A program made the position numbers and the translations under genes. A stretch of 64,000 nucleotides of DNA from Leucosporidium creatinivorum (Eukaryota > Basidiomycota > Microbotryomycetes > Leucosporidiales > Leucosporidiaceae), in contig BCKL01000007.1 in the NCBI GenBank assembly GCA_001600635.1, forward strand, positions 86,303 to 150,302, read 5' to 3'. The notes beneath the pieces were generated by a model. It did no database searches. It was not told the origin of the DNA and saw nothing but the letters and a program-made list of their open reading frames with translations. Below are positions 1,990 to 54,470 of this stretch, piece after piece. Position 1 is the first letter of the stretch, and each line of letters begins with the position of its first letter.

Positions 1990-3756
1990 CTAGTTCGCGA
2001 TTTGAGCGTCCTTGAACATCCTCGTATGTGCGCGCTCATATTGGACCGGTACAGCGACCGACACGCCAAGCTCCTGCGCCCAATCGAAGACGAGGTCGGC
2101 GTTGCGGAGGAACTCGCGAGCGACGCTGATCTGCACAGGAGGAAGGAGAGACGTCAGCGCCGAGCTCGAGCCGAGTCGAGGGACGGAGAACGCACGATAT
2201 CGGCCTTGCCCTCTTGCAAGATCTGCTCAGCCTGCTTGCCGTTGGTGATGAGTCCGACAGCCGAGATGGGGATGCGGTTCTCGTCGGTGAGGGACGCCCT
2301 GAGCTGCTCGGCAAACGGCACCTTCGGAGGGGAAAGGGGGATCAGCTTGCTGTTCTCTTCGAGCTGAGGAAGTAGGAAACTACGCACCTGGTATCCAGGA
2401 CCGAGCTTGATCCTCTGCTTGGGGTCGTTTCCGCTCGACGAGGCGTCGAGAAGGGCGACTCCACGCTTGACCGCTTCGGCCAAATATTGCTTCGATTGCT
2501 CGATGCCCCAGGAGATGTACTCTCCAGCCTCGTTGGTCTCACCGTCGGGAGAGTTGTCGCTGGCTGAGATCCTAACGAACACTGGCTTCGAAGCGGAGAG
2601 GGTCGAACGAGTGATGTCGATAACCTCCATGGCGAGGCGAAGGCGATTCTCGAGGCTGCCGCCGTACTTGTCGGTGCGCTTGTTGGAGATGGGCGAGAGG
2701 AACTCGTGGAGCTGTTCAATGAAATGGGTCAGCATCGGAGGGGGAGAGAAGACAAAGAGAGAAGACGGACGAGGTAGCCGTGCGCCGAGTGAATCTCGAC
2801 GACGTCCACTCCAGCTTCGTCAGCCCTCTTGACCGCGGCCTTCCAGGCTTCCTTGAACTCTTCAATGTCCTCCAGGGTCATAGCCTTCGGACTGGGGAAT
2901 CCGTCGCTGTATGAAAGCGCCGAGGGTCCCCAGACATTGTCGGTCCATCCTCCCTCCTCGCCGTTGGTAGCGATGTGGGTGTTGGCGGGAGGCTTGGTGG
3001 GAGACATGTTGAGCCAGGGAGCTACCGTAGAGGCCTTACGGCCGGCATGCGCCAACTGAATCCCGCAGCGAGCGCCGTTGGCCTTGATAAAGTCGAAGAT
3101 GGGCCTCCAAGCGTCGCGCTGCTCGTCGTTCCAGATTCCAGGGCATTGAGGAGTGATGCGACCGTTCTGTAGTGCAAGATAGATCAGCTCCGGAGCGCCG
3201 AGATGAACGAAAAAGGACTCACGGGAAGGACAGCGGTCGCTTCGGCGATGACGAGGGATGCTCCGCGAGTAGCAAAGCCTCCGAGGTGAACGAAGTGCCA
3301 GGGAGTCGGCTTGCCTTCGTTGGCACTGTACTGGCACATCGGCGCGACTTGAATGCGATTCTTGAAGAGGAGTCCGCCGATTTCGATGGGCTGAAAGAGA
3401 AGGGGGAGCTGCTCGTTGTGGGGGAAGAGCTTGCTGGAGAAGGCTGTACCAGGCGACGGGCTGGTCTCCGGGATGTAGAAGGGTGCATTTGGTACGCCCT
3501 TGTTGACGAGAGCCGGAGGAGGAGAAGCAGGCGAGATGGATCCCATGGTGGAAGCTGTGGAGAAGGTGCGGGTTGGAGTGGTGCCGGAGAGATACAGACG
3601 GTGGGCGAGCTGGGTGCGGAGCAGAGATGGGCTAGAGATGTGCAGACTGCGGGCGAACTGTTCGAGACGAATGGCGGCGATGTGGTAGGAGCGAAGGAGT
3701 CGACCTCGCGGATTCCCTCGCTGAAGTGCTGTGCTGAGTGAGCTGCCGGCAAGCAT
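1990..3756 (-). CDS. NADH:flavin oxidoreductase, Old Yellow Enzyme family (YqjM-like class)
   Basis: An FMN-dependent ene-reductase that would reduce activated C=C bonds with NAD(P)H. Pieces of the OYE barrel lie in order over at least five exons: LFQPIEIGGLLFKNRI and VAPMCQYSA at the start of the barrel, HLGGFATRGASL, IQLAHAGRKAS, then VEIHSAHGYL (the substrate-binding His-x-x-His pair), SNKRTDKYGGSLENR, VFVRISA, and finally ISVAREFLRNADL in the last exon (acceptor just after a CTGAC branch near 2150). The MCQYSA and HAGRK motifs point to the thermophilic-like YqjM class rather than yeast Oye2. The chosen ATG at 3754-3756 adds about 70 residues rich in Arg, Ser and Leu that look like a mitochondrial presequence; a second in-frame ATG at 3546 would remove it. 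Convergent with the surface protein gene on the left; downstream of Mdj1 on the same strand. Confidence 0.9.
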
Positions 3757-3965
3757 CCGAGCTCGGTATATGCACCCTCCGGATGAGACTTAGCGAGCGA
3801 GCAACCGAGGTACCCTTACACCGAAGCAGAACAAGAATAGCGCACAAGTTGGACCGAGCTTCGCGCCTCCTCTTCGCCTCACCTCTGCCGAGGTAGCCTT
3901 GAGAGCGGGGAGCTGTAGCATCAGATTGTGTATTCCGTTCCTCACTACAAGTTCTATGATCAGAA

Positions 3966-6157
3966 TCACTTCTTCTCCTTCTTCATCTCCTCCTCCAGCT
4001 TCTCCTTGGCCTCCTCGACCTTCTCCTCCAACTTGTGCTTGACCTCCTCGACCTTCTCCTTTCCCGCTGCTCGACGAAAGGCCGTCAGCCTCTTTCCTCA
4101 CTTCTTCTTGGGCAGCCAACGACGGATACCTTGCCACAGATCGTCCAGAGTCGAGTGCTTCTCCGCCATGGGCTCGGCCGAGGGCTGCTCCTCGGTTGCT
4201 GAGGCAGTGGGCTCGGGTGATGGTGGAGGAGGAGAGGCGGTCTTGGTCGACTTCTTGGGAGGAGCAGAGTCGGTGGGCTCGGAGGGACGGGTCGAGGTGA
4301 TGTCCTCGTCCATCGTTGACCACCAGGCCGGCTTGCTCGAAGCTGTGAGCGAGACGAAAAAGTCAGCGAGAGCTACAAGAATCGAGGAAAACTACAACGC
4401 ACCCTCGTCCCGTGGAGGAGGCGCCGACTGGGATTCGAAGCCGGGCGACGCTGGTGTTGGTGAAGGAGGAGTCGAGGGAGGAGTGTCGGGCTGACTGGGC
4501 TTCGAGGCGGAAGGAGCGTAGGCCGATGAGCCGGGGAACTCGGTTTCCGAGACGAACTGCTGGAGGATGCGCTTTTGAGCTGGCGAGAGAGCCCTGTATC
4601 AAAGAAGTAGAGTCAGCGCGGAAGAGCGAGCGAGCGAGGAGAAGGACGAACCTCGGGATGGAGATGTTGAAGCGAACGACCAGATCTCCAAACTCCTCCC
4701 GATACAGCTTCTTGATACCGCGACCGCGAAGGACCATCTCCTCGCCGGGCTGGGTACCATTGGGGACCTTGACCTCGACGTCCTTGTCGAGAGTAGCGAC
4801 CCTAGCCCGACCTCCGAGAATGGCGGTGTAGAAGGGCACAGCGACGTCTTGGTAGAGGTTGGTACCCTGCCTCGTGAACGTCTTCGAAGGCGAAACGTTC
4901 ACGCGAACGAAAAGGTCGCCCGTCCTTCCCTTTCCGCCGATGGGAGCGTCGCCTTCCTCGGGGATGCGAATCTTCATGCCCTCATCGACGCCAGGAGGGA
5001 TCTTAACCTCGACCTGCTTGCGCTCCCGCACCTTTCCTACACCATTGCAGGTGCCGCAGTTGCTGCCCTCGGGCGCGACCTCTCCGCTCCCAGCGCAGGC
5101 GTTGCAGGTCGAAGCCATCTGGAAGCCGCTTTGGATGGTGAAGGTGCGAGTGCCGGATCCTCCGCAGGTTCGGCAAGTCGTCTTTTTGGCTCCAGGCTTC
5201 AAGCCACTGCCGGAGCAGGGCTTGCAGTCGACGACGGGCGAGACGTTGACGGTCCTCGTCGTTCCCTTGGCGGCGTCGAGGAAGGGGAGGGTGATGGAGA
5301 CTTCGATGTTGTCGCCAACGTGCTGGCCTTGACCAGGACGAGCGGATCCGCCTCGTGCACGACCGCCAAAGGCGCCAAAGAGGGACTCGAAGATGTCCGA
5401 TCCTTGAGCCGAGCCTGCTCCTCCTCCGCCGAAGAAGTCGCCGAACCCAGCGCCGCCGAACGACGACGAGGCGCGAGCGTAAGCGTCCGAGTCGAAGCCT
5501 TGCTGCTGGGATGCAGCGCCGAAGCGGTCAAAGTCGGCGCGCTTCTTGTCGTCCGAGAGAGTCTGAGGGCGGGAGAGACCGAGTGAGTCGCGGAAAGCGA
5601 AAGCTGCAGAGCTGTGGGACGTACATCGTAGGCCTCCTGAATCTCCACAAACTTCTCCTTTGCTCCTTTATCCTTGTTGGAGTCAGGGTGGAACTTTTTG
5701 GCGAGCTAGAAACGAGAGACGGAACGTGAGGGAACGTCAACAAGGGCGACTTCTAGCTCTGTAGCGAGCTGAGAGCTCACCTGGTAATAGCTCTTCTTGA
5801 TCTCCGAGGTCGAAGCATCCTTGCCTACGCCGAGAACGCCATACGGATCCCTCGCCAGCTGCCGGGGCGTCGAATGGAAGCTTCTCTAAAAAAGGCCGCA
5901 AAGCGGCGACGTCAGTAACGTCCTACAGACCGAGCTGGGGAAGCAAGAGAGCAGCGCACCTCTCCTACACGCTGACTAGACCGCTCAGCCGAGCTGGAAG
6001 CGCCCGAGTTCCAAAGCGACGGAGCCGAGCGACGACGAGGTGAGGGTCGAGACGAAGCGAGAGTGGAAGCTGCACGGGCTAGCGGTGTAGCGGAGCCTGT
6101 AGGCCTACAGAGGCATGTCGGAGATGCCAGCAGCGAGATCAGAGGCGGTCGAGCCAT
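3966..6157 (-). CDS. MDJ1: Mitochondrial type I DnaJ/Hsp40 co-chaperone Mdj1
   Basis: Partner of mitochondrial Hsp70 in matrix protein folding. Exon 1 from ATG 6157 encodes an Arg/Ser-rich presequence (MARPPLISLLASP...). The next exons give the J domain (DPYGVLGVGKDAS, then the HPD loop in KKFHPDSNKDKG), a Gly/Phe-rich stretch near 5350-5480, and four zinc-binding CxxCxGxG repeats (CKPCSGSG, CRTCGGSG, CNACAGSG, CGTCNGVG). The substrate-binding C-terminal domains follow. The gene end is ambiguous. Reading through gives a stop at 4098 after RRWLPKKK. An intron at 4067-4129 (GTATCC donor, CTGAC branch, CAG) instead joins DDLWQ to a Lys/Glu-rich helix of about 30 residues ending at 3966. I prefer the spliced form because the tail has strong coding character. 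An upstream TTG at 6220 is not a credible start. Confidence 0.9.
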
Positions 6158-32834: not shown

Positions 32835-32905
32835 GTGAGTCCACTGCCTCCAAGAGAATCAGCGCCGAGGGTCGCAAGCTGACCCTTCCGCTCTCCCTTC
32901 ACAGC
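32835..32905 (+). other. Predicted 5'-UTR intron of the Trp-rich/CBM1 gene
   Basis: 71 bp with GTGAGT donor, GCTGAC branch and TTCACAG acceptor, ending 65 bp before ATG 32971. Its place next to the start codon suggests a leader intron. Confidence 0.55.
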
Positions 32906-32940
32906 ACACCCACACTCTTTCGTCTTTCTCCTTTCTCGAC

Positions 32941-32957
32941 AGTAGCTCGTAGCTACT
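32941..32957. promoter_or_regulatory. Perfect inverted repeat just upstream of the start codon
   Basis: AGTAGCT, a 3-bp spacer and AGCTACT form a perfect 7-bp-arm hairpin 13 bp before ATG 32971. In the mRNA it would be a small stem-loop near the start. Function unknown; could be chance. Confidence 0.3.
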
Positions 32958-32970
32958 ACTCCACCTACTG

Positions 32971-35900
32971 ATGGTGCGAGTTTCCCAACCTCTTCCCTTC
33001 CTTCTTCTCGCCGGCGCCGCCCTGGTCATTGCCGACCCTCACCCTCACGCCACCAACAACGCCCTCTCCTCCGCTCACACCCTTCACGAGCGCACGCTCC
33101 TCGGTGGCGTTCTTGGTGGTCTCTTCGGCGGCGGCAACGGCCAGGGCCACAAGGCTCGCTGCCCTTCGACCTTCAAGTGCGATGGTGAGTGCTCTGCGGA
33201 CTCGAGACTCTTGGGTTCGTACATTAGAGCTGACGTCCGCGCTCTTTGTTGCAACAGGCTCCGGCTCTGACGGCTATGTCTACGATAGCTGGGGAAACTC
33301 TTGCCCCGTACGTCACCAGCCTTCGTCATCTCTTCGCCGAGCAGCCTTTCGTCGCCGAGCAGAGTTCCACTCGCTGACCTCACTTCTCCGTACAGTCTCA
33401 CCTCCCCTCGGGATGGCACTACTTCGGTGGCCAAGTAGGCTGGGCTCCTCCCAGGACTTGGAGCTGCGACTCCTCCTGGTCACTTCCTCCCGCCGCCGTC
33501 AGCGGCTGCTCGAAGGCGACCTGGTGGTCCCCAGGCCGCTCCTGGAAAGGCAGGCGCGACTTCACCATCCCTCGCTGGTGGAACATCTACGTGGATAGGA
33601 ACTGGTCTTGTTCCAAGAGCGGTCTCGACGGTCAGATGTGAGCTGCGTCGACTCGGCGCTCGGTCGGCTTACTAACCCGTTTCTTCGCACTCAGCTACGA
33701 CCACAACGGCAACACGCTCCCCAATGGGTACCCCACTGGATGGTTGTGGTTCGGTGGCTCCATTGGCTGGAGCCCGCCCAAGGCTTGGATCCCTGCCAGT
33801 GACTGGATTCCCTCTGCTTCGGCGTCGACGTCGCTTTCGGGCTGCACCTGGTGGGGTGAGTTGCTTCTCTTTGAGCTTCGTCATCTTCGATTCACCCTAC
33901 ATCGCTCGTTGTCGACGCTACGAGACGTCTGACCGGCTTCCGCCATCCTCTCAACTTCGCCGAACTGGCGCTGACTTTCCTTCTCACCCTTCTGACTTTG
34001 CTAGCTCCTCCCGCTTCGTGGACCGTCCCCGCCGGCTTCAACATCCCCTCCTTCTGGGGCTCTCTGGGATGGGTCAACAACGCCTGGCCCTCGAAGAGCT
34101 GGACTTGCAACGGCAAGGGCAACGACGGCTTGACGTGAGTCGGCGCCGAGCAGCTTCCACGAGGTACGAAGCTGACATCTTCTTCTCATACAGCATCGAC
34201 TGGCAAGGAAACACTCGCCCTTCGGTCTACCCCGAGGGGTGGCTCTACTTCGGCGCGTGAGTCTGTGTTCGCTCGCTCATGCTCGGCGCCGATAGCCGAT
34301 CTTCGCTCTCCTCCTACCAGCAACCTCGGCTGGCTTCCTCCTTCCGGATGGTCTTGCGGCAAGAACTGGGTTCCCTCTTCCTCGGCCTCCGTTGGCCTCG
34401 GCGTTGCCACTTGGTGGGGTAAGCCGCTTTCCTCCTTCTCTCGTCTCGCTCGGCGCTCGCTGACCGCTCGCTCGCAGCTCCTCCTTCGACCTGGATCGTG
34501 CCCTCCTCTCTCACAATCTCCATCCCCGACTGGTGGGTGGGTCTCGGATGGACCAACTCGGCCTGGCCTTCCAAGGGCTGGACTTGCAACGGCAACGGAA
34601 ATGACGGTTTGACGTGAGTCGGCGCCGAGCAGCTCTCGGAGAGTTTGCACCTGACGTTCGTTTTCTCTACAGCATCGACTGGCAGGGTAACGGTCGTCCT
34701 TCGGTCTATCCCGAGGGATGGCTCTACTTTGGCGCGTGAGTGTCGTTTCGCTCTTCCTGCTCGTCGGCGCGGAAAGCTAATCTCGCTCGTCTCTCGCAGC
34801 GGTCTCGGCTGGCTTCCTCCTTCCGGATGGACTTGCGGCAAGAACTGGGTTCCCTCTTCCTCGGCCTCCGTTGGCCTCGGCGTTGCCACTTGGTGGGGTA
34901 AGCCGCTTTCCTCCTTCTCTCGTCTCGCTCGGCGCTCGCTGACCGCTCGCTCGCAGCTCCTCCTTCGACCTGGATCGTGCCCTCCTCTCTCACAATCTCC
35001 ATCCCCGACTGGTGGGTGGGTCTCGGGTGGACCAACTCGGCTTGGCCTTCCAAGGGCTGGACTTGCAACGGCAACGGAAATGACGGTTTGACGTGAGTCG
35101 GCGCCGAGCAGCTCTCGGAGAGTTTGCACCTGACGTTCGTTTTCTCTACAGCATCGACTGGCAAGGCAACACTCTTCCCCGTGGCTACCCCGCCGGATGG
35201 CTCTGGTTCGGCGTGTAGGTCGCCTTGCGGGTCCCTGCCATCGCCGAAGCTGACCTTCTTCAACTAACAGTGAGGTCGGATGGGCGCCGTACGTTGGATG
35301 GACCTTCCCCTCGGGCAGTATCTCCTGGGTCCCCAGCGCCTGGATCCCCAAGATCCCCGCCTGCACCTGGTGGAGTGAGTTTCCCTTCGCCTTCTTCTCG
35401 GCCGCTCAATCCTCGCCTCTTCGCTTCGCCACCGCTCACACGCGTCTCTCACAGGTCCTCCCTCTTCTTGGAGACCTCCAGCTTCCATCACCGTCATGCC
35501 CACCTTCTGGAGCTGCTCGCCTCGTTCGACCATCGTCGCCGCGACGACCACGTCTTCCAGTCCCGCTACCACCCCCGCTGCCTCCTGCTCGGGACAGTGG
35601 GCTCAGTGCGGCGGCGTCTCTTTTTCTGGAGCTTCCTGCTGTAAGCTATGTCCCTGCTGTTCCGACTGAGCGCCAGTGCTCTCGGCTCTCAAGCTCGGCG
35701 TCCTCCGTACTCACACTCTGCTCCATCTCACAGGCCCCGCTGGCTTCTCCTGCTCCTACGTCAACCAGTACTACTCTCAGTGCCAGCCGGCTGCCGATGT
35801 CACCACGACCAAGGGTAAGCTTGTGGACTAGATTCATCCGACGAGCTCGGCGCTGATCCACTCCTTTGTTCATAGCTGGCACCACCTCGCAGGCTGGCAC

Positions 35901-37488
35901 CACCTCTAAGGCGGCTACCACGTCCAAGGTCGTCGTAACTACTACCAAGCAGCGTGAGCTCACTTGTGTCAAAGTTTGAAGGCCGAGATCAGCGGCTAAT
36001 CCAATTCCCTATATCAGCAGCTACAACCTCGGTCAAGGCTACCACGACGCAGAAGGCTTCCTCTACATCCCAGAAGCCAGCTACTACCTCGTCCAAGGCC
36101 GTTTCGTCGACCACGAAGAGGGGTGAGTTCGACGAGTCGACTCGGGGACGAAAAGCGACTGACCGCCTTCTTCTCTTCTAGTCACTACTTCTGTCAAGCC
36201 TCCCACCACCGGAAAAGCTTCAACTTCCTCTTCCTGCACGACTTCATCCGTCAAGGATGCTTCGACCAAGGGTGAGCTTCGTCTGGTTCATCGCCGAGTT
36301 TGAGCGATCGGCTGATCCTGCTCCATCCAGTCACAACCTCGGTCAAGGCCACCGGTTCTCCCAAGGGTCCGCTCATTCAGCTTTTCGAGCTCTGCACCCC
36401 GCTGACTTGCTCCTTCCACAGCTTCCGCCACCAAGACTGGCAGCCCCGGCAAAGTCACCATCGCCAAGCCCATCACCAAGACCGTCATCGTCGAGCACAC
36501 CCAAGGCGGAAGCGTCATCACCGTTCGCGAGACTCAGACTGTCACTCAAATCATCTCGGCGCCCGCTGCGACCAGCACTCAGTCCAACAACGGCTGGCCT
36601 TCGAGCGGCTGGACTTGCAACGGCAGCGGAGAGGACGGTGTAGCAGTCGACCATCACGGCCACGAGTGTGGTTCTGAGTACCCCAGTGGGTGGCTCTGGT
36701 TCGGCAGCTCTGTAGGCTGGGCCGCGCCCAAGGGATGGACTCCGTCGTCGAGCAACTGGATTCCGAGCGCTTCGGCGTCGGTGTCGCTTTCAGGCTGCAC
36801 CTGGTGGGGTGAATTGCTTCTCTTTGAACTTCACTTTCTTTATTCCCCCTCCATCGCTCGCTTCCGACTCCACAAGGTGTCGATTCAGCCTCCGCCATCC
36901 TGTCAATGTCGCCGAACTCGCGCTGACTCTTCTTCTCACCCTTCTCAACTCTCTAGCTCCTCCCGCTTCGTGGACCGTCCCTGTCGGCTTCAGAATCCCC
37001 TCGTTCTGGTACTCGCATGGCTGGACCAACAAGCCTTCCCATTCATGGGAGTGCGATGGCTCGGGTCGTGATGGACGGACGTGAGTCGACCGAACTTCCT
37101 TCACCGCCTCCCGTAGAAGCTCGCTGACCTTCTATTTCCCACCTACAGCGTCGACTGGCAAGGCAACTCTCGCCCTCATGGCTTCGGTCCCGAGTTCCTC
37201 TGGTTCGGCGTTAACCGCGGATGGCAAGTCTCGCACGGCTGGATCAACCCTCCTCACTGGAGCCCTCCCTCCTCTTGGAAGTCCCAGCACGCTACCTGGT
37301 GGTGAGTTTACTGCCGTTTTGTGGTCCTGATGTCTTGCTTCAGGCGCTGTCGAGAAGCCAAAGCGCGAGCAGAAGCTGACTTCGCTGCTGTACACAGGTC
37401 GCCCAGCCGTACATGGCACTACAGCGGAAGCTCTCAGAAGTGGTGGAAGACGTCGCACATCCGTGGGAACTGGACTTGGGCGATTTAA
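32971..37488 (+). CDS. Secreted modular protein: tryptophan-rich repeats flanking a CBM1 cellulose-binding domain
   Basis: ATG 32971 starts a signal peptide (MVRVSQPLPFLLLAGAALV). The mature protein is made of about seven Trp-rich modules of roughly 95 residues: IDWQGNxRPSxYPxGWLYFG, xLGWxPPxxW, WVPSSSASVxLxxxTWW, PPxxWxVP, W-x-LGW, SKxWTCNGxGxDGLT. Modules begin near 33258, 33695, 34194, 34673, 35152, 36593 and 37149. Between modules five and six lie a Thr/Ser linker and a typical fungal CBM1 (SGQWAQCGG, then GFSCSYVNQYYSQC; six Cys, conserved aromatic residues) at about 35566-35795, followed by a TTSVKATT-type linker cut by several introns. Exons checked include 32971-33184, 33258-33307, 33396-33638, 33695-33855, 34005-34134, 34194-34256, 34321-34418, 34478-34613. 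The last module ends SHIRGNWTWAI. I do not recognise the Trp module. CBM1 implies binding to cellulose or chitin; no glycosidase domain is seen. Confidence 0.85.
34194..35151 (+). repeat. Tandem 479-bp duplication inside the Trp-rich gene
   Basis: Two units of exactly 479 bp (34194-34672 and 34673-35151), each one complete module with its introns. Most exons and two of three introns are identical or nearly so between units, including the 59-bp introns 34614-34672 and 35093-35151. The intron after the FGA codons has diverged. This is a recent duplication or gene conversion. The third period starts at 35152 with a divergent module. Confidence 0.9.
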
Positions 37489-49843: not shown

Positions 49844-50303
49844 TCGAACGCAGAGCTGCGACGAGCAGAAAGAACAGAAGGATTCGAGCCCTCGTCGGTC
49901 GATATCACCTCCGCGGAGCAGTGCAGTTGCCAAAAGCGTGAGATCATCAAATGGGCGTTGTGGGAGGCGAGACAAAGTTGCATCAGAGTATTGACAGTCG
50001 AAGCTGCAGTCTTACGAGAAGGAAGGGCCTCGCCGAAGCGCCTGAGTGGAGAGCTTGCCTACGCCGAGCGCTCGCATTGCTCTCTGGCAGGCCTAAGACT
50101 CGTACTCGATTATATGAAACAACAGAACAATGCTCCACCAGCCATCCTACATATTATGAGCGCCGTCGTGGGCTAGCCATCTATTCCGCCGCCAATGCCG
50201 AGCCTGCTTAACAGAGCGGGCTCTCGAGTCGGGCTGTGGCTCAGAGCTGATGAGAAGTCTGTAATACATGATAGCTACTTCGAATGCTCACCTGTGGCTC
50301 AGA
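49844..50303. other. Non-coding sequence left of the assembly gap
   Basis: 460 bp with no recognised gene. The last 68 bp hold the start of a 58-bp-period repeat (see separate entry). Confidence 0.5.
50236..50303. repeat. Start of a probable 58-bp-period tandem repeat at the gap edge
   Basis: GTGGCTCAGA at 50236-50245 recurs at 50294-50303, the final bases before the N run. Extended context (CTGTGGCTCAGA) also matches. Only one full period is visible, so an array is an inference. Confidence 0.45.
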
Positions 50304-50603
50304 NNNNNNNNNNNNNNNNNNNNNNNNNNNNNNNNNNNNNNNNNNNNNNNNNNNNNNNNNNNNNNNNNNNNNNNNNNNNNNNNNNNNNNNNNNNNNNNNN
50401 NNNNNNNNNNNNNNNNNNNNNNNNNNNNNNNNNNNNNNNNNNNNNNNNNNNNNNNNNNNNNNNNNNNNNNNNNNNNNNNNNNNNNNNNNNNNNNNNNNNN
50501 NNNNNNNNNNNNNNNNNNNNNNNNNNNNNNNNNNNNNNNNNNNNNNNNNNNNNNNNNNNNNNNNNNNNNNNNNNNNNNNNNNNNNNNNNNNNNNNNNNNN
50601 NNN
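50304..50603. other. Assembly gap of 300 N
   Basis: Exactly 300 N, probably an estimated or placeholder length. Real sequence content is unknown. No frame across it can be trusted. Confidence 0.99.
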
Positions 50604-50924
50604 ATCGAGGGAGAGGATGCTGAGCCGAGCCTGGTCGAGGGAGCGCCGAGCGGAAGGGAGGTCGAGCGAGGGAGACGAGGAATGTCGAGCGAGTGTAGGG
50701 AGGTCGAATGAGGAGGATAATGAGCGTCGAGATAATGTACATGCGATGCTGGTGCAGTAGTGAGATGGGAATGCCTCAGGCTCGGACACTGCTGACCTGC
50801 AGCATGTCGTTTCGGTCTCCCTCCTCATCCCTCTTCTGCCTGGACGCGATTACACCTTTGCTCCTCATTCATCTTCCACCTCCACATCCTCCATCTGACA
50901 CACACCCAGCTCGGCCTTCGCTCA
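50604..50924. other. Sequence right of the gap with degenerate GTCGAG-type repeats
   Basis: Between 50604 and about 50735 the motif GTCGAGSGAG (S = C or G) and relatives occur four to five times at irregular spacing (e.g. near 50633, 50660, 50685, 50701). The rest is C/T-rich and probably the 3' UTR of the small gene at 50925. Confidence 0.45.
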
Positions 50925-51345
50925 TCAAGCCTTCGTACTCGGCTTGGATGGTCGACCCTTCTTGCCATGATTGAGCGACGCTCGACGTTCGATGTCGGCT
51001 CTTGATCGATTCCACATGATGTTGGTCCATTCGGTGATGCTCTCTGTACACGAGTAGAAGCAAACAAAGTCAGCCTTAGCTCAGCCAGCGAAGATGCACT
51101 TCGAGGAAAGGGGAAGGGGTCCGAGCTCCGAGCGGCAGCGCCGAGATGAGTTTCGGAGAGCAAAGGTGAAGGTGCTGACCTGAGTAACGACGCTGAGCAG
51201 CGATGACTTTGGGTGAAGGCGCGTCTTCAGAGTAGTCTGCTAGTGCCGACGTTGAGGGAGACGAGGGCGCGGTCGCCGCTTGCAAAGTGGAGGGAGTCGA
51301 GCTGCCGCTGGAGCTGGTCGAGTCGAAGGAGTTGGCTGGCTGCAT
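50925..51345 (-). CDS. Small uncharacterised protein (about 95 residues)
   Basis: Two exons, 51180-51345 and 50925-51043, separated by an intron with a less common GTCAGC donor and a GCTGAC branch plus TACAG acceptor. The N-terminal half is Ser/Thr/Pro-rich (MQPANSFDSTSSSGSS), then VIAAQRRYSES joins in phase to ITEWTNIMWNRSRADIERR and a basic tail KKGRPSKPSTKA. The aromatic/basic block around the junction resembles short conserved segments in other small fungal proteins, but I recognise no family. No signal peptide or membrane segment. Confidence 0.5.
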
Positions 51346-51843
51346 GGTGGTGGTGCAAGTGCTTTCTTAGGTGCGCGCAGGAGCGGTCAAGTGATAGGGA
51401 AGAGGCCAAGGTTCGAACTTCGGCGCCCCCGACTGGAGCATTTTAGGGCGGTTGATGACATCTGCGGAGAGGCAAGGGCTTCTCCAGCTTCGACAACCCC
51501 GGGGTAGGCGCGTTCTGTAGGGTCTTCTCATGCTTGTGCTCACCCGGAAAGCTACTCTTGTGCAGGGTCTGCGGGTCGCGTAGAGCATCAGGCGGACCCT
51601 GGCTGCCTCCCCTCGGCCTCGGCGCTGGCCTCCGAAGCGAGGCTGACTCTGAACCTACGCTCAGAGCGCCTTACTTTGACATCCGCCGGATGTCTACGGT
51701 GTGTAACGACTTACATGAGCAGCGAGTTGGAAGCGACTCTCGAGCGTACTTCGACCGAGGTCGGGTGTAACTCGGCTTCCTTGCCGAGCTCTCTATCGAG
51801 CAATTGCTTCTATGAAAGGCTGCTGCCACGCGCAATGGTACAT
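51346..51843. other. Intergenic upstream of the small gene
   Basis: 498 bp with the promoter of the small gene and the 3' end of the malic enzyme. A B-box-like GGTTCGAAC at about 51411 was examined for a tRNA and rejected. Confidence 0.5.
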
Positions 51844-54470
51844 CTACTTCTCTACCAAGAACAGGGGGCGATACACCGGGTCCCACATCATCGCTCGAAT
51901 CTCCTCCTCTGTGAAGTCGGTCGTCCTCTTTGCCCTCGAGACGCCCTCAGCCCGTGCTGCGTTGGCTACGGCGGTAGCTACCTTGACCGATACGTTGCGA
52001 AGGTCCTTAAGGTGAGGCAGGAGCGACTCGTGTGGGTCCTCGAGGGCGGGGGCGAGCTTTGCGAGAGCGCCGACACCGGCCGTGATCATTAGGTCGGTGA
52101 GACGGTTGCCCTTAGCAGCAATGATACCGAGCGCGAGCGCCGGGTAGATGAGCGCGTTATTGGATTCGGCGACCTTGTAGAGCTGGCCGTTCTCGTAGTT
52201 CTTGATGGGAGGGAAGGGGCTGCCGGTGGCCATGAGCGCTCGGCCGGAGGTCCACTCGTTGACGTCACCTTGTGGGTGTGTGGGTGAAGGTGAACAAGGG
52301 GGATAATTAGATGGGGAAGCGGAGGAGGAAGAGGAGGAGGGGGAAGAGGTGGCAAAAGGGAAGGACAAGTCAGCGAGATTCCCGGTTCGGCGCTCGCGTC
52401 GGATCGACGACTCACTGGGGTCGGCCTCGGCAAGGCGGGTAGGATTACTGAGAGGGAAGATGACGGGCCTGTCGCAGTGTTTGGACATCTCGCGAACGAT
52501 CTGAGCACAGCGAGTGAGGATCAGCTTCTCGGCCGAGATGGGAGAACGTCGCCAAACTCACCTCCTCGTTGAAGGCGCCGGCCTTGGTGGAACATCCGAT
52601 GAGCACTGTTGGCTTCGCCTTCTTGACAACCTCGAGAAGGGTGATGCCCTGCTCGGGATCGCAGTTCCAGTCGGCGACCTCCTCGTGATCGCGAAGGAAG
52701 TTGGACTGGCCCTCGCGCAGAGTTGCGGGGTTGGCGGCGGTGGTGAGCAGTCCCGGACGGTCGAGTACCCTGGACGTAGTGTTAGAGTCAGCTTTCTTCG
52801 CAGTTCAAGACGGGAGCGACTCACCAGAAGCACTTGCGCGCCTCCTCGCTCGTGAGGCCGCCCTCAATCATGAGCGCGCTGCGAATTCCGTCGGCGATTC
52901 CCTGACCGGCAGTTCCAAATCCGAACACACAGATGCGCTGGTCCTTCAGCTCCGACTTTGTGACCTTGCAGGCACTCATCAGCGCCGAGAGAACGACGGC
53001 GGCGGTTCCCTGCATGTCGTCGTTGAAGCACGACTGCTTCTCGCGGTACTTGGAGAGAATCCTGCCGGCGTTGTCGACGCCGAAGTCCTCGAAGTGAAGG
53101 AAAGCGTCCTTGTAGCACTCGCGAACCGTGTCGCAGAACTTGTCGACGAAGTCGTCGTACTCCTTGCCGCGAATACGGGAGCGACGAAGTCCTAGGTAGA
53201 GGGGATCGTTGAGAAGTGTCATGTTGTCGGTTCCGACGTCGAGAACGATGTTAAGCTGTGAGCAGAAGCGGTCACGGTCAGCGACGAGCGGCTGGGCTCA
53301 AATTGGTGAGGCGACTTGCGATGCGGGAGGGGTCGATACCGGCGCCGAGGGTGTAGCTGGAGAAGGGTAAACTCAAGTCAGCGACGCGGGCGAGCTCATG
53401 TGGGTGAGGCGGACCGACATGTTGCCTGTGAAAGGGAAGACTCGTCAGCTCCGAGATTGACGCTCGAGTCTCGCCATGTCACTCACTCTTTCCGATGGCA
53501 ATGAGAATGCCGCCGACTCCCTGATCTCCAATACCGAGGATGCCCTCACTGTCGGTGACGACAATGAGGTCGACATCCTTGGGCCGCTTGCTCGTGAACA
53601 TGAGCTCGCGCATGCGATCCTTGTCGGTGTAGGTGAGGAAGAGTCCGTCCGGTCGGCGCCATACTTGCGAGTACTTCTGGATCGCCTCGCCGACGGTGGG
53701 CCTGCGCAAGTACGGGTCAGCCTGCGCCTTCGGCAGGACTCGGCGCTCGGCGAATCGGCCAGCAATCAACGTGACTCACGTGTAGATGAGGGGTAGAACC
53801 TCCTTGAGGTGACGAAGGGCGAAGTTGTAGAAAAGCACCTACGCGAAGGGGCCAGAGTGTCGGGGTCAGCCTCAGAGCTTACGCCGAGACGGGTGTACTC
53901 ACCTGGTTCTGGTCGCGAAGGGAAGCCAGGAAGGTGTACTTGGAAAGAGGTGTTCCCCTTTGTTGGAGCTGAAAGTAGGCGCGCTTGCACTGCATTTCGA
54001 GGTCATGCACCTCGTGTCTAAGCGGCAGGTGGCTCAAGTTAGCTCCACCTTTCGTCGGCGCCGAGAGGTGAACAACTCACGGCAGCAGGCCTACAAGACC
54101 GAAAGTATCACGCTCCTCGCGGTTGAAAGCAGCACCCTTATTCAGCGAAGGCTCGTTTAGCAACGCAGTCCCCCTCAGCGCCGTCCATTGTGGCCTCTGC
54201 GAAGCGAAGGAGGGGGTCAGCAAAACGCGTCCGGCCGAGCTTTATCTCGCTCGTCTCAAGAGCTCTGTAGGCTCTTCTAGCAGCTCGGCTATTTGTCCGA
54301 CAATGCTACGAACTCACCTCGTTCTTAGCATGAGCCAAAAAATGCTTGTTGTCGGCCAACTCTTTAGCTTCCGCAGAGTGGGAGGTCGAAATGGCTCGAG
54401 GCGAAGGGACAGCTGCTCCAGCAGGTCGTGTAGACTTGGGCAAAGCTCGTAGAACAGAAGTGCTCCTCAT
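51844..54470 (-). CDS. MAE1: Malic enzyme, mitochondrial (NAD(P)-dependent decarboxylating)
   Basis: Converts malate to pyruvate and CO2 with NAD(P)+. ATG 54470 starts MRSTSVLRALPKSTRPAG, an Arg/Ser-rich presequence, so matrix location is likely. Then in order: LAHAKNERPQWTALRGTA, LLNEPSLNKGAAF, FGLVGLLP, PLIYTPTVGEAIQKYSQ, VVTDSEGILGIGDQG, LYLGLRRSRIRGKEYD, FEDFGVDNAGRIL, the metal-binding FNDDMQGTAAVVLSAL, the dinucleotide fold FGFGTAGQGIAD, IFPLSNPTRLAEADP, DVNEWTSGRALMATGSPF, and NALIYPALALGIIAAKG. About ten introns; one of about 145 bp lies at 52270-52415 between ADPS and DVNEW. The C-terminus ends RPLFLVEK. Coenzyme choice (NAD or NADP) cannot be read off with certainty. SSADH lies just upstream on the same strand. 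Confidence 0.94.

What the first reader, a model, noticed from the sequence alone, without database searches (positions are those of the whole stretch)
32971..37488. Possible undescribed tryptophan-rich module repeated around a CBM1 domain
Seen: about seven modules of roughly 95 residues, with recurring pairs of Trp, GWLYFG/GWLWFG, TWW and SKxWTCNG motifs, placed on both sides of one CBM1 and Thr-rich linkers behind a signal peptide. Known: CBM1 binds cellulose or chitin and is normally tethered to a catalytic domain. No glycosidase or LPMO motif is visible. Inference: the modules may themselves bind polysaccharide through Trp platforms, making a multivalent scaffold, adhesin or wall-modifying protein. 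I cannot name the module, so it may be new or restricted to few fungi.
Basis: partly seen in the sequence, partly recalled or inferred. Interest (0 to 1): 0.82.

Follow-up and report, generated by a model that had tools for sequence, protein, structure and literature searches.

The report
New tryptophan-rich repeat in fungal protein
A yeast probably related to Leucosporidium encodes a secreted-looking protein built from seven copies of an unnamed tryptophan-rich unit around one cellulose- or chitin-binding domain; relatives turned up only in one class of fungi and no solved structure matched, so it is probably an undescribed surface-binding building block.

The parts
32971..37488 (+). whole coding region, 23 exons, 962 aa
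   Evidence: hand splice model; spliced alignments to P0008, P0004, P0003
32971..33033 (+). signal peptide (about aa 1-21), followed by a short propeptide-like stretch ending LHER and a Gly/Leu stretch
   Evidence: by eye; a similar N-terminal layout is seen by eye in most relatives printed
33172..33587 (+). module 1 (aa 68-152)
   Evidence: limits; leave-out HMM 97.1 bits
33603..34096 (+). module 2 (aa 158-253)
   Evidence: limits; 89.7 bits
34100..34575 (+). module 3 (aa 255-352)
   Evidence: limits; 98.3 bits
34579..35054 (+). module 4 (aa 354-451), near copy of module 3
   Evidence: limits; 97.1 bits; the two modules share a 300 nt direct repeat at 98%, 479 nt apart, introns included
35058..35522 (+). 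module 5 (aa 453-542)
   Evidence: limits; 84.5 bits
35586..35783 (+). CBM1 (aa 564-598), split by intron 35641-35733
   Evidence: PF00734 at aa 567-595, E 1.1e-8; intron
35805..36492 (+). Thr/Ser/Lys-rich linker (aa 606-735), interrupted by introns
   Evidence: composition; exons of this part are the least certain
36610..37033 (+). module 6 (aa 775-866)
   Evidence: limits; 91.7 bits
37046..37470 (+). module 7 (aa 871-957), last module, of a type shared across genera
   Evidence: limits; 62.8 bits; inside a clade of last modules, 96/89, on a long branch

Best explanation
A secreted, non-catalytic, multivalent binding protein of the fungal surface or extracellular matrix. Shown by sequence: a signal-peptide-like start, tandem Trp-rich modules, a CBM1 with the known binding residues, and a Thr/Ser linker that separates a five-module arm from a two-module arm. 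Inferred: after secretion and cleavage behind the LHER site, CBM1 docks on cellulose or chitin, the glycosylated linker acts as a spacer, and the modules give repeated contacts to wall or substrate glycans, so that one molecule cross-links or adheres. The number of middle modules changes by tandem duplication while the last module stays fixed. CBM1 was added to an older Microbotryomycetes scaffold in this lineage.
For: Anatomy. CBM1 keeps residues at the places of Y5 (here W), Q7, N29, Y31, Y32 and Q34 of T. reesei CBM1 (positions from passages of PMC3532174; register by eye, counted against a recalled sequence). Pfam gives no catalytic domain in the window protein. One of 31 relatives, P0028, joins three modules to a CPL1-like domain (PF21671, E 2.2e-16), a domain of adhesin-like flocculins in basidiomycete yeasts (abstract of PMC12864254). 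N-terminal modules, Thr linker and two last modules recur in other genera. CBM1 joined to non-catalytic modules is 11% of the fungal domain pairs in one survey (PMC3532174 passage).
Against: No binding, localisation or expression data. CBM1 is seen in none of 31 relatives (precomputed Pfam column; regex; Pfam rescans of 16 of 31), nor in the part of the C8 paralog assembled, so the family's basic work does not need it. No GPI anchor is evident at the C terminus (by eye). Trp may be buried: I had no coordinates to test exposure. The CPL1-like fusion is a single case and could be a gene-prediction fusion.
Confidence: 0.55

Rival explanations
1. A structural wall or matrix protein: the modules are rigid Trp- and Pro-packed spacers that bind no glycan; only CBM1, where present, anchors.
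For: Confident predicted fold with almost no regular secondary structure, which would need a core of large side chains (inference); W45, W72, W73 and W91 (first-row numbering of A1) are Trp in 53, 52, 48 and 51 of 53 rows, as core residues would be.
Against: 10-13 Trp in 85-98 residues is more than a small core seems to need (inference); several Trp positions exchange with Phe or Tyr, which either reading allows.
Confidence: 0.22
2. A secreted effector or antimicrobial precursor, trimmed behind a basic propeptide site and acting on host plants or competing microbes.
For: Secreted-looking, with a propeptide-like N terminus in most relatives printed (by eye); PMC6476726 names some proteins labelled proteophosphoglycan among effector candidates (passage), but that label is used for many genes.
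Against: Large and repetitive, present in many yeasts; no toxin or effector family match in Pfam.
Confidence: 0.13
3. An unrecognised enzyme, with the modules forming catalytic units.
For: Invariant G15-x-D17-G18 and a near-invariant D22 (52 of 53) in the module.
Confidence: 0.04

Closest known systems
Uncharacterised Microbotryomycetes proteins P0001-P0031, some labelled proteophosphoglycan ppg4
   Same: Same modules; most share the N-terminal layout and many the Thr linker and two last modules; E down to 3.1e-158
   Different: No CBM1 seen in any of 31. The label ppg4 looks like an annotation carry-over: PMC6476726 reports 85 ppg4 copies in one genome (passage)
CBEL of Phytophthora parasitica
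   Same: CBM1 joined to non-catalytic domains; implicated in wall integrity and adhesion to cellulosic substrates (abstract of PMC3532174)
   Different: CBEL uses PAN/Apple domains; none found here by Pfam. Oomycete, not fungus. CBEL carries two CBM1 (abstract of PMC4577117)
Basidiomycete CPL1/PriA-type flocculins
   Same: Adhesin-like (abstract of PMC12864254); CPL1-like domain joined to these modules in P0028
   Different: The window protein has no CPL1-like domain
CBM5/12-type chitin-binding modules (recalled, no call)
   Same: A Trp-Trp pair in the module recalls their AKWW motif (recalled)
   Different: No such Pfam match at E up to 10 in the window protein or 53 modules; no structural match

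Membership tests
CBM family 1 (for aa 564-598) | Pfam PF00734 above curated cut-off | tested here: met
   35.3 bits against 20.6, model positions 1-29 of 29
CBM family 1 (for aa 564-598) | two disulphide Cys pairs and the binding face (Y/W5, Q7, N29, Y31, Y32, Q34) | tested here: met
   by eye on the sequence printed, positions from passages of PMC3532174, register counted against a recalled sequence
CBM family 1 (for aa 564-598) | binding to cellulose or chitin | not testable with these tools
   needs protein
CBEL-like proteins | PAN/Apple domains beside CBM1 | tested here: not met
   at E up to 10 Pfam lists only CBM_1 and SSL_N (E 0.081, below its cut-off)
CBEL-like proteins | no catalytic domain beside CBM1 | tested here: met
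   no catalytic Pfam family
CPL1/PriA-type flocculins | CPL1-like domain PF21671 | tested here: not met
   not listed for the window protein; present in P0028
any named CAZy CBM family (for the Trp module) | match to a named family model | tested here: inconclusive
   53 modules against Pfam at E up to 10: seven families, none in more than 3 modules, best E 0.0035 in one module; CAZy/dbCAN models not held
any named CAZy CBM family (for the Trp module) | demonstrated glycan binding | not testable with these tools
   needs protein

The most novel reading that the evidence does not exclude
The module founds a new carbohydrate-binding module family with a new fold: a Trp- and Pro-packed, nearly strand-free unit of about 95 residues, invented in the Microbotryomycetes, copied in tandem and later joined to CBM1 or CPL1-like domains to make surface glues.
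Probability: 0.35. Interest if true: 0.75.

Novelty: new variant of a known kind. Interest (0 to 1): 0.55.

Why it matters
If the modules bind glycans, a class of basidiomycete yeasts carries an undescribed family of surface-binding proteins, partly hidden under a misleading label. A confidently predicted fold with almost no regular secondary structure and no PDB match would interest structural biologists whatever it binds. It also puts CBM1, reported absent from the Pucciniomycotina compared in one study except R. glutinis (PMC4469406 passage), in a non-catalytic setting.

Tried and rejected
Prokaryote genomes: one pattern, 27 stretches matched, none confirmed. Viral contigs: two patterns, 67 stretches, none confirmed. 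Both scans rest on one or two short patterns, so they are weak negatives. Rfam and tRNA on the window: nothing. PDB by sequence: best E 0.053 for a 123 aa piece and 1.2 for the profile, taken as chance. NCBIfam: no match in five relatives (the window protein was not given). Weak Pfam matches of modules (DUF5701 E 0.0035 in 1 of 53, AftA_N in 3 of 53) taken as chance. DUF4794 (E 7.9e-5, 24 bits against cut-off 25, 16 residues) and CCB1 (17 against 25) in P0014, and CIS_TMP (E 0.043) in P0001, rejected as below cut-off. MBOAT in P0017 and RRM in P0019 taken as gene-prediction fusions, not tested. C1:413209 (E 0.11) not accepted. Ten neighbouring ORFs scanned: a mitochondrial carrier, MoCF_biosynth, F-box and weak dehydrogenase matches, nothing that suggests a linked system. 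A Ca2+-loop reading of the DG-D-GN motif was thought of and not tested.

Print: nine searches showed no description of this module in their listings; the library holds open-licence papers only. The ppg4 expression value in R. kratochvilovae (PMC8481953 passage) cannot be tied to this family.

Full report
What is there. The window is 64 kb of a 27.7 Mb genome in 63 contigs; most 2 kb steps of the window are near 60% GC. The finding lies on one gene on the + strand. I built the gene by hand from splice signals: 23 exons, 22 introns that all begin GT and end AG, continuous frame, 962 residues, from ATG 32971 to the stop ending at 37488. For P0004 and P0003 the departures all lie at 35455 or beyond; for P0008 two of three lie at 33524-34004, in modules 1-2, and one spans the CBM1/linker part. 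The linker exons, intron 19 above all with its GTCCGC donor, are the least certain.

The modules. An HMM of 113 segments, cut by a regular expression from the 20 proteins and built without this gene, finds seven modules at aa 68-152, 158-253, 255-351, 354-450, 453-541, 775-866 and 871-956, with 97.1, 89.7, 98.3, 97.1, 84.5, 91.7 and 62.8 bits, besides a one-residue hit of -2.7 bits. In 1000 shuffles of the same protein it reports nothing. In the six frames of the window its matches over 8 bits all fall inside this gene. In 53 aligned modules of relatives Gly15, Asp17, Gly18, Pro29, Gly40 and Trp45 never vary, and Cys11, Asp22, Gly25, Trp72, Trp73 and Trp91 are among the nearly invariant (first-row numbering). 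In 21 of 21 module pairs of the gene dN is below dS, with 0.027 against 0.19 for modules 3 and 4; distant pairs are near saturation. Modules 3 and 4 share a 300 nt repeat at 98%, introns included, 479 nt apart: a recent tandem duplication. In window modules 2-5 introns sit at the same places: phase 2 two residues after DG and phase 1 after TWW; modules 1, 6 and 7 keep this only in part or not at all. In the paralog on C8 the DG intron is phase 2 in 4 of 5 cases and the TWW intron phase 1 in 4 of 4.

CBM1 and linker. PF00734 matches aa 567-595 over its full length (E 1.1e-8). By eye, C571, C582, C588 and C598 fit the two usual disulphides, and W568, Q570, N592, Y594, Y595 and Q597 fit the binding face (positions from passages of PMC3532174; register counted against a recalled sequence). 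The own-genome six-frame scan for PF00734 did not list this CBM1, probably because an intron splits it; so that scan cannot exclude other split copies. The linker aa 606-735 has 37 Thr and 23 Ser. In 13 of 31 relatives a CGC-type Cys cluster is present, by eye near the place where this protein has its CBM1.

Relatives. The first protein search scored 7986 candidates, those sharing most words, and gave 20 proteins. The second, with module-only sequence, scored 3936 and gave 15, of which 11 were new. A search with the single-module alignment gave none of 201. Named sources (28 of 31) are Rhodosporidiobolus, Rhodotorula, Sporobolomyces, Leucosporidium, Phenoliferia, Pseudohyphozyma and two unnamed Microbotryomycetes. 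Of these I looked up three species, all Microbotryomycetes; the place of Rhodosporidiobolus, Rhodotorula and Sporobolomyces in that class is recalled. Module counts over 15 bits run from 1 (P0031, which looks like a broken prediction) to 8. None shows CBM1: the precomputed Pfam column has none in 31, a regex finds only the CPL1-like domain of P0028, and Pfam rescans of 16 of 31 find none.

Own genome. Besides this gene one more clear member lies on C8 at 549291-552261. Its assembled part matches L. creatinivorum P0016 at 484 of 579 aligned positions (split codons not counted as identical) and has no CBM1 motif in the sequence printed. The host is therefore probably a relative of Leucosporidium (inference). 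No ortholog of the window gene from L. creatinivorum was listed, only P0016. A third place on C1 (E 0.11) I do not accept.

History of the repeats. I put 88 modules from 15 proteins (14 of 31 relatives, picked by hand for spread, and this gene) into a tree; with 96 columns many forks are open. The last modules of 10 of 11 full-layout proteins, this one included, form one clade (96/89). Next-to-last modules form a clade for 8 of 11, which also holds one N1 row; the window's is not among them and joins its own modules 2-4 (99/91). The window's first module joins the first modules of three Rhodosporidiobolus proteins (98/85). Middle modules mostly group by species. So the ends look old and the middle renewed by duplication. 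Three rows have long branches, the window's module 7 among them, and their places are unsure.

Function. The anatomy fits a secreted non-catalytic binder. CBEL of Phytophthora shows that CBM1 joined to non-catalytic domains can serve wall integrity and adhesion (abstract of PMC3532174). P0028 joins three modules to a CPL1-like domain, found in adhesin-like flocculins (abstract of PMC12864254). CBM1 was reported absent from the Pucciniomycotina compared in one study except R. glutinis (PMC4469406 passage), while PMC6476726 reports it in two Rhodotorula endophytes (passage), so it is rare but not unique there. Since the relatives seem to do without CBM1, the modules should carry the family's own function. 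I hold glycan binding as most likely, structural packing as the main rival.

Verdict.

Noticed in passing
G000:C20:283.3-285.2 kb, locus L021 about 3300-5200, minus strand: Another protein with several CBM1 copies and Ser/Thr-rich stretches: four of six ORFs scanned match CBM_1, three of them over the cut-off. No Trp module seen by eye.
   Followed up: partly
G000:C8:549291-552261 (locus L020), minus strand: Second member of the family in this genome, close to L. creatinivorum P0016, without CBM1 in the assembled part.
   Followed up: yes
P0028, Pseudohyphozyma bogoriensis: Three Trp modules joined to a CPL1-like domain (PF21671, E 2.2e-16); the window's genome has 18 PF21671 matches, 16 over the cut-off.
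   Followed up: partly
window 32835-32942: A GT...AG stretch just before the ATG looks like an intron in the 5' untranslated region (by eye).
   Followed up: no
window 50001-52000: G+C falls to 0.491 against 0.576-0.625 in the other 2 kb steps.
   Followed up: no
public names of relatives: Several relatives are named proteophosphoglycan ppg4, a label that PMC6476726 counts 85 times in one genome (passage) and that says nothing about this module.
   Followed up: partly
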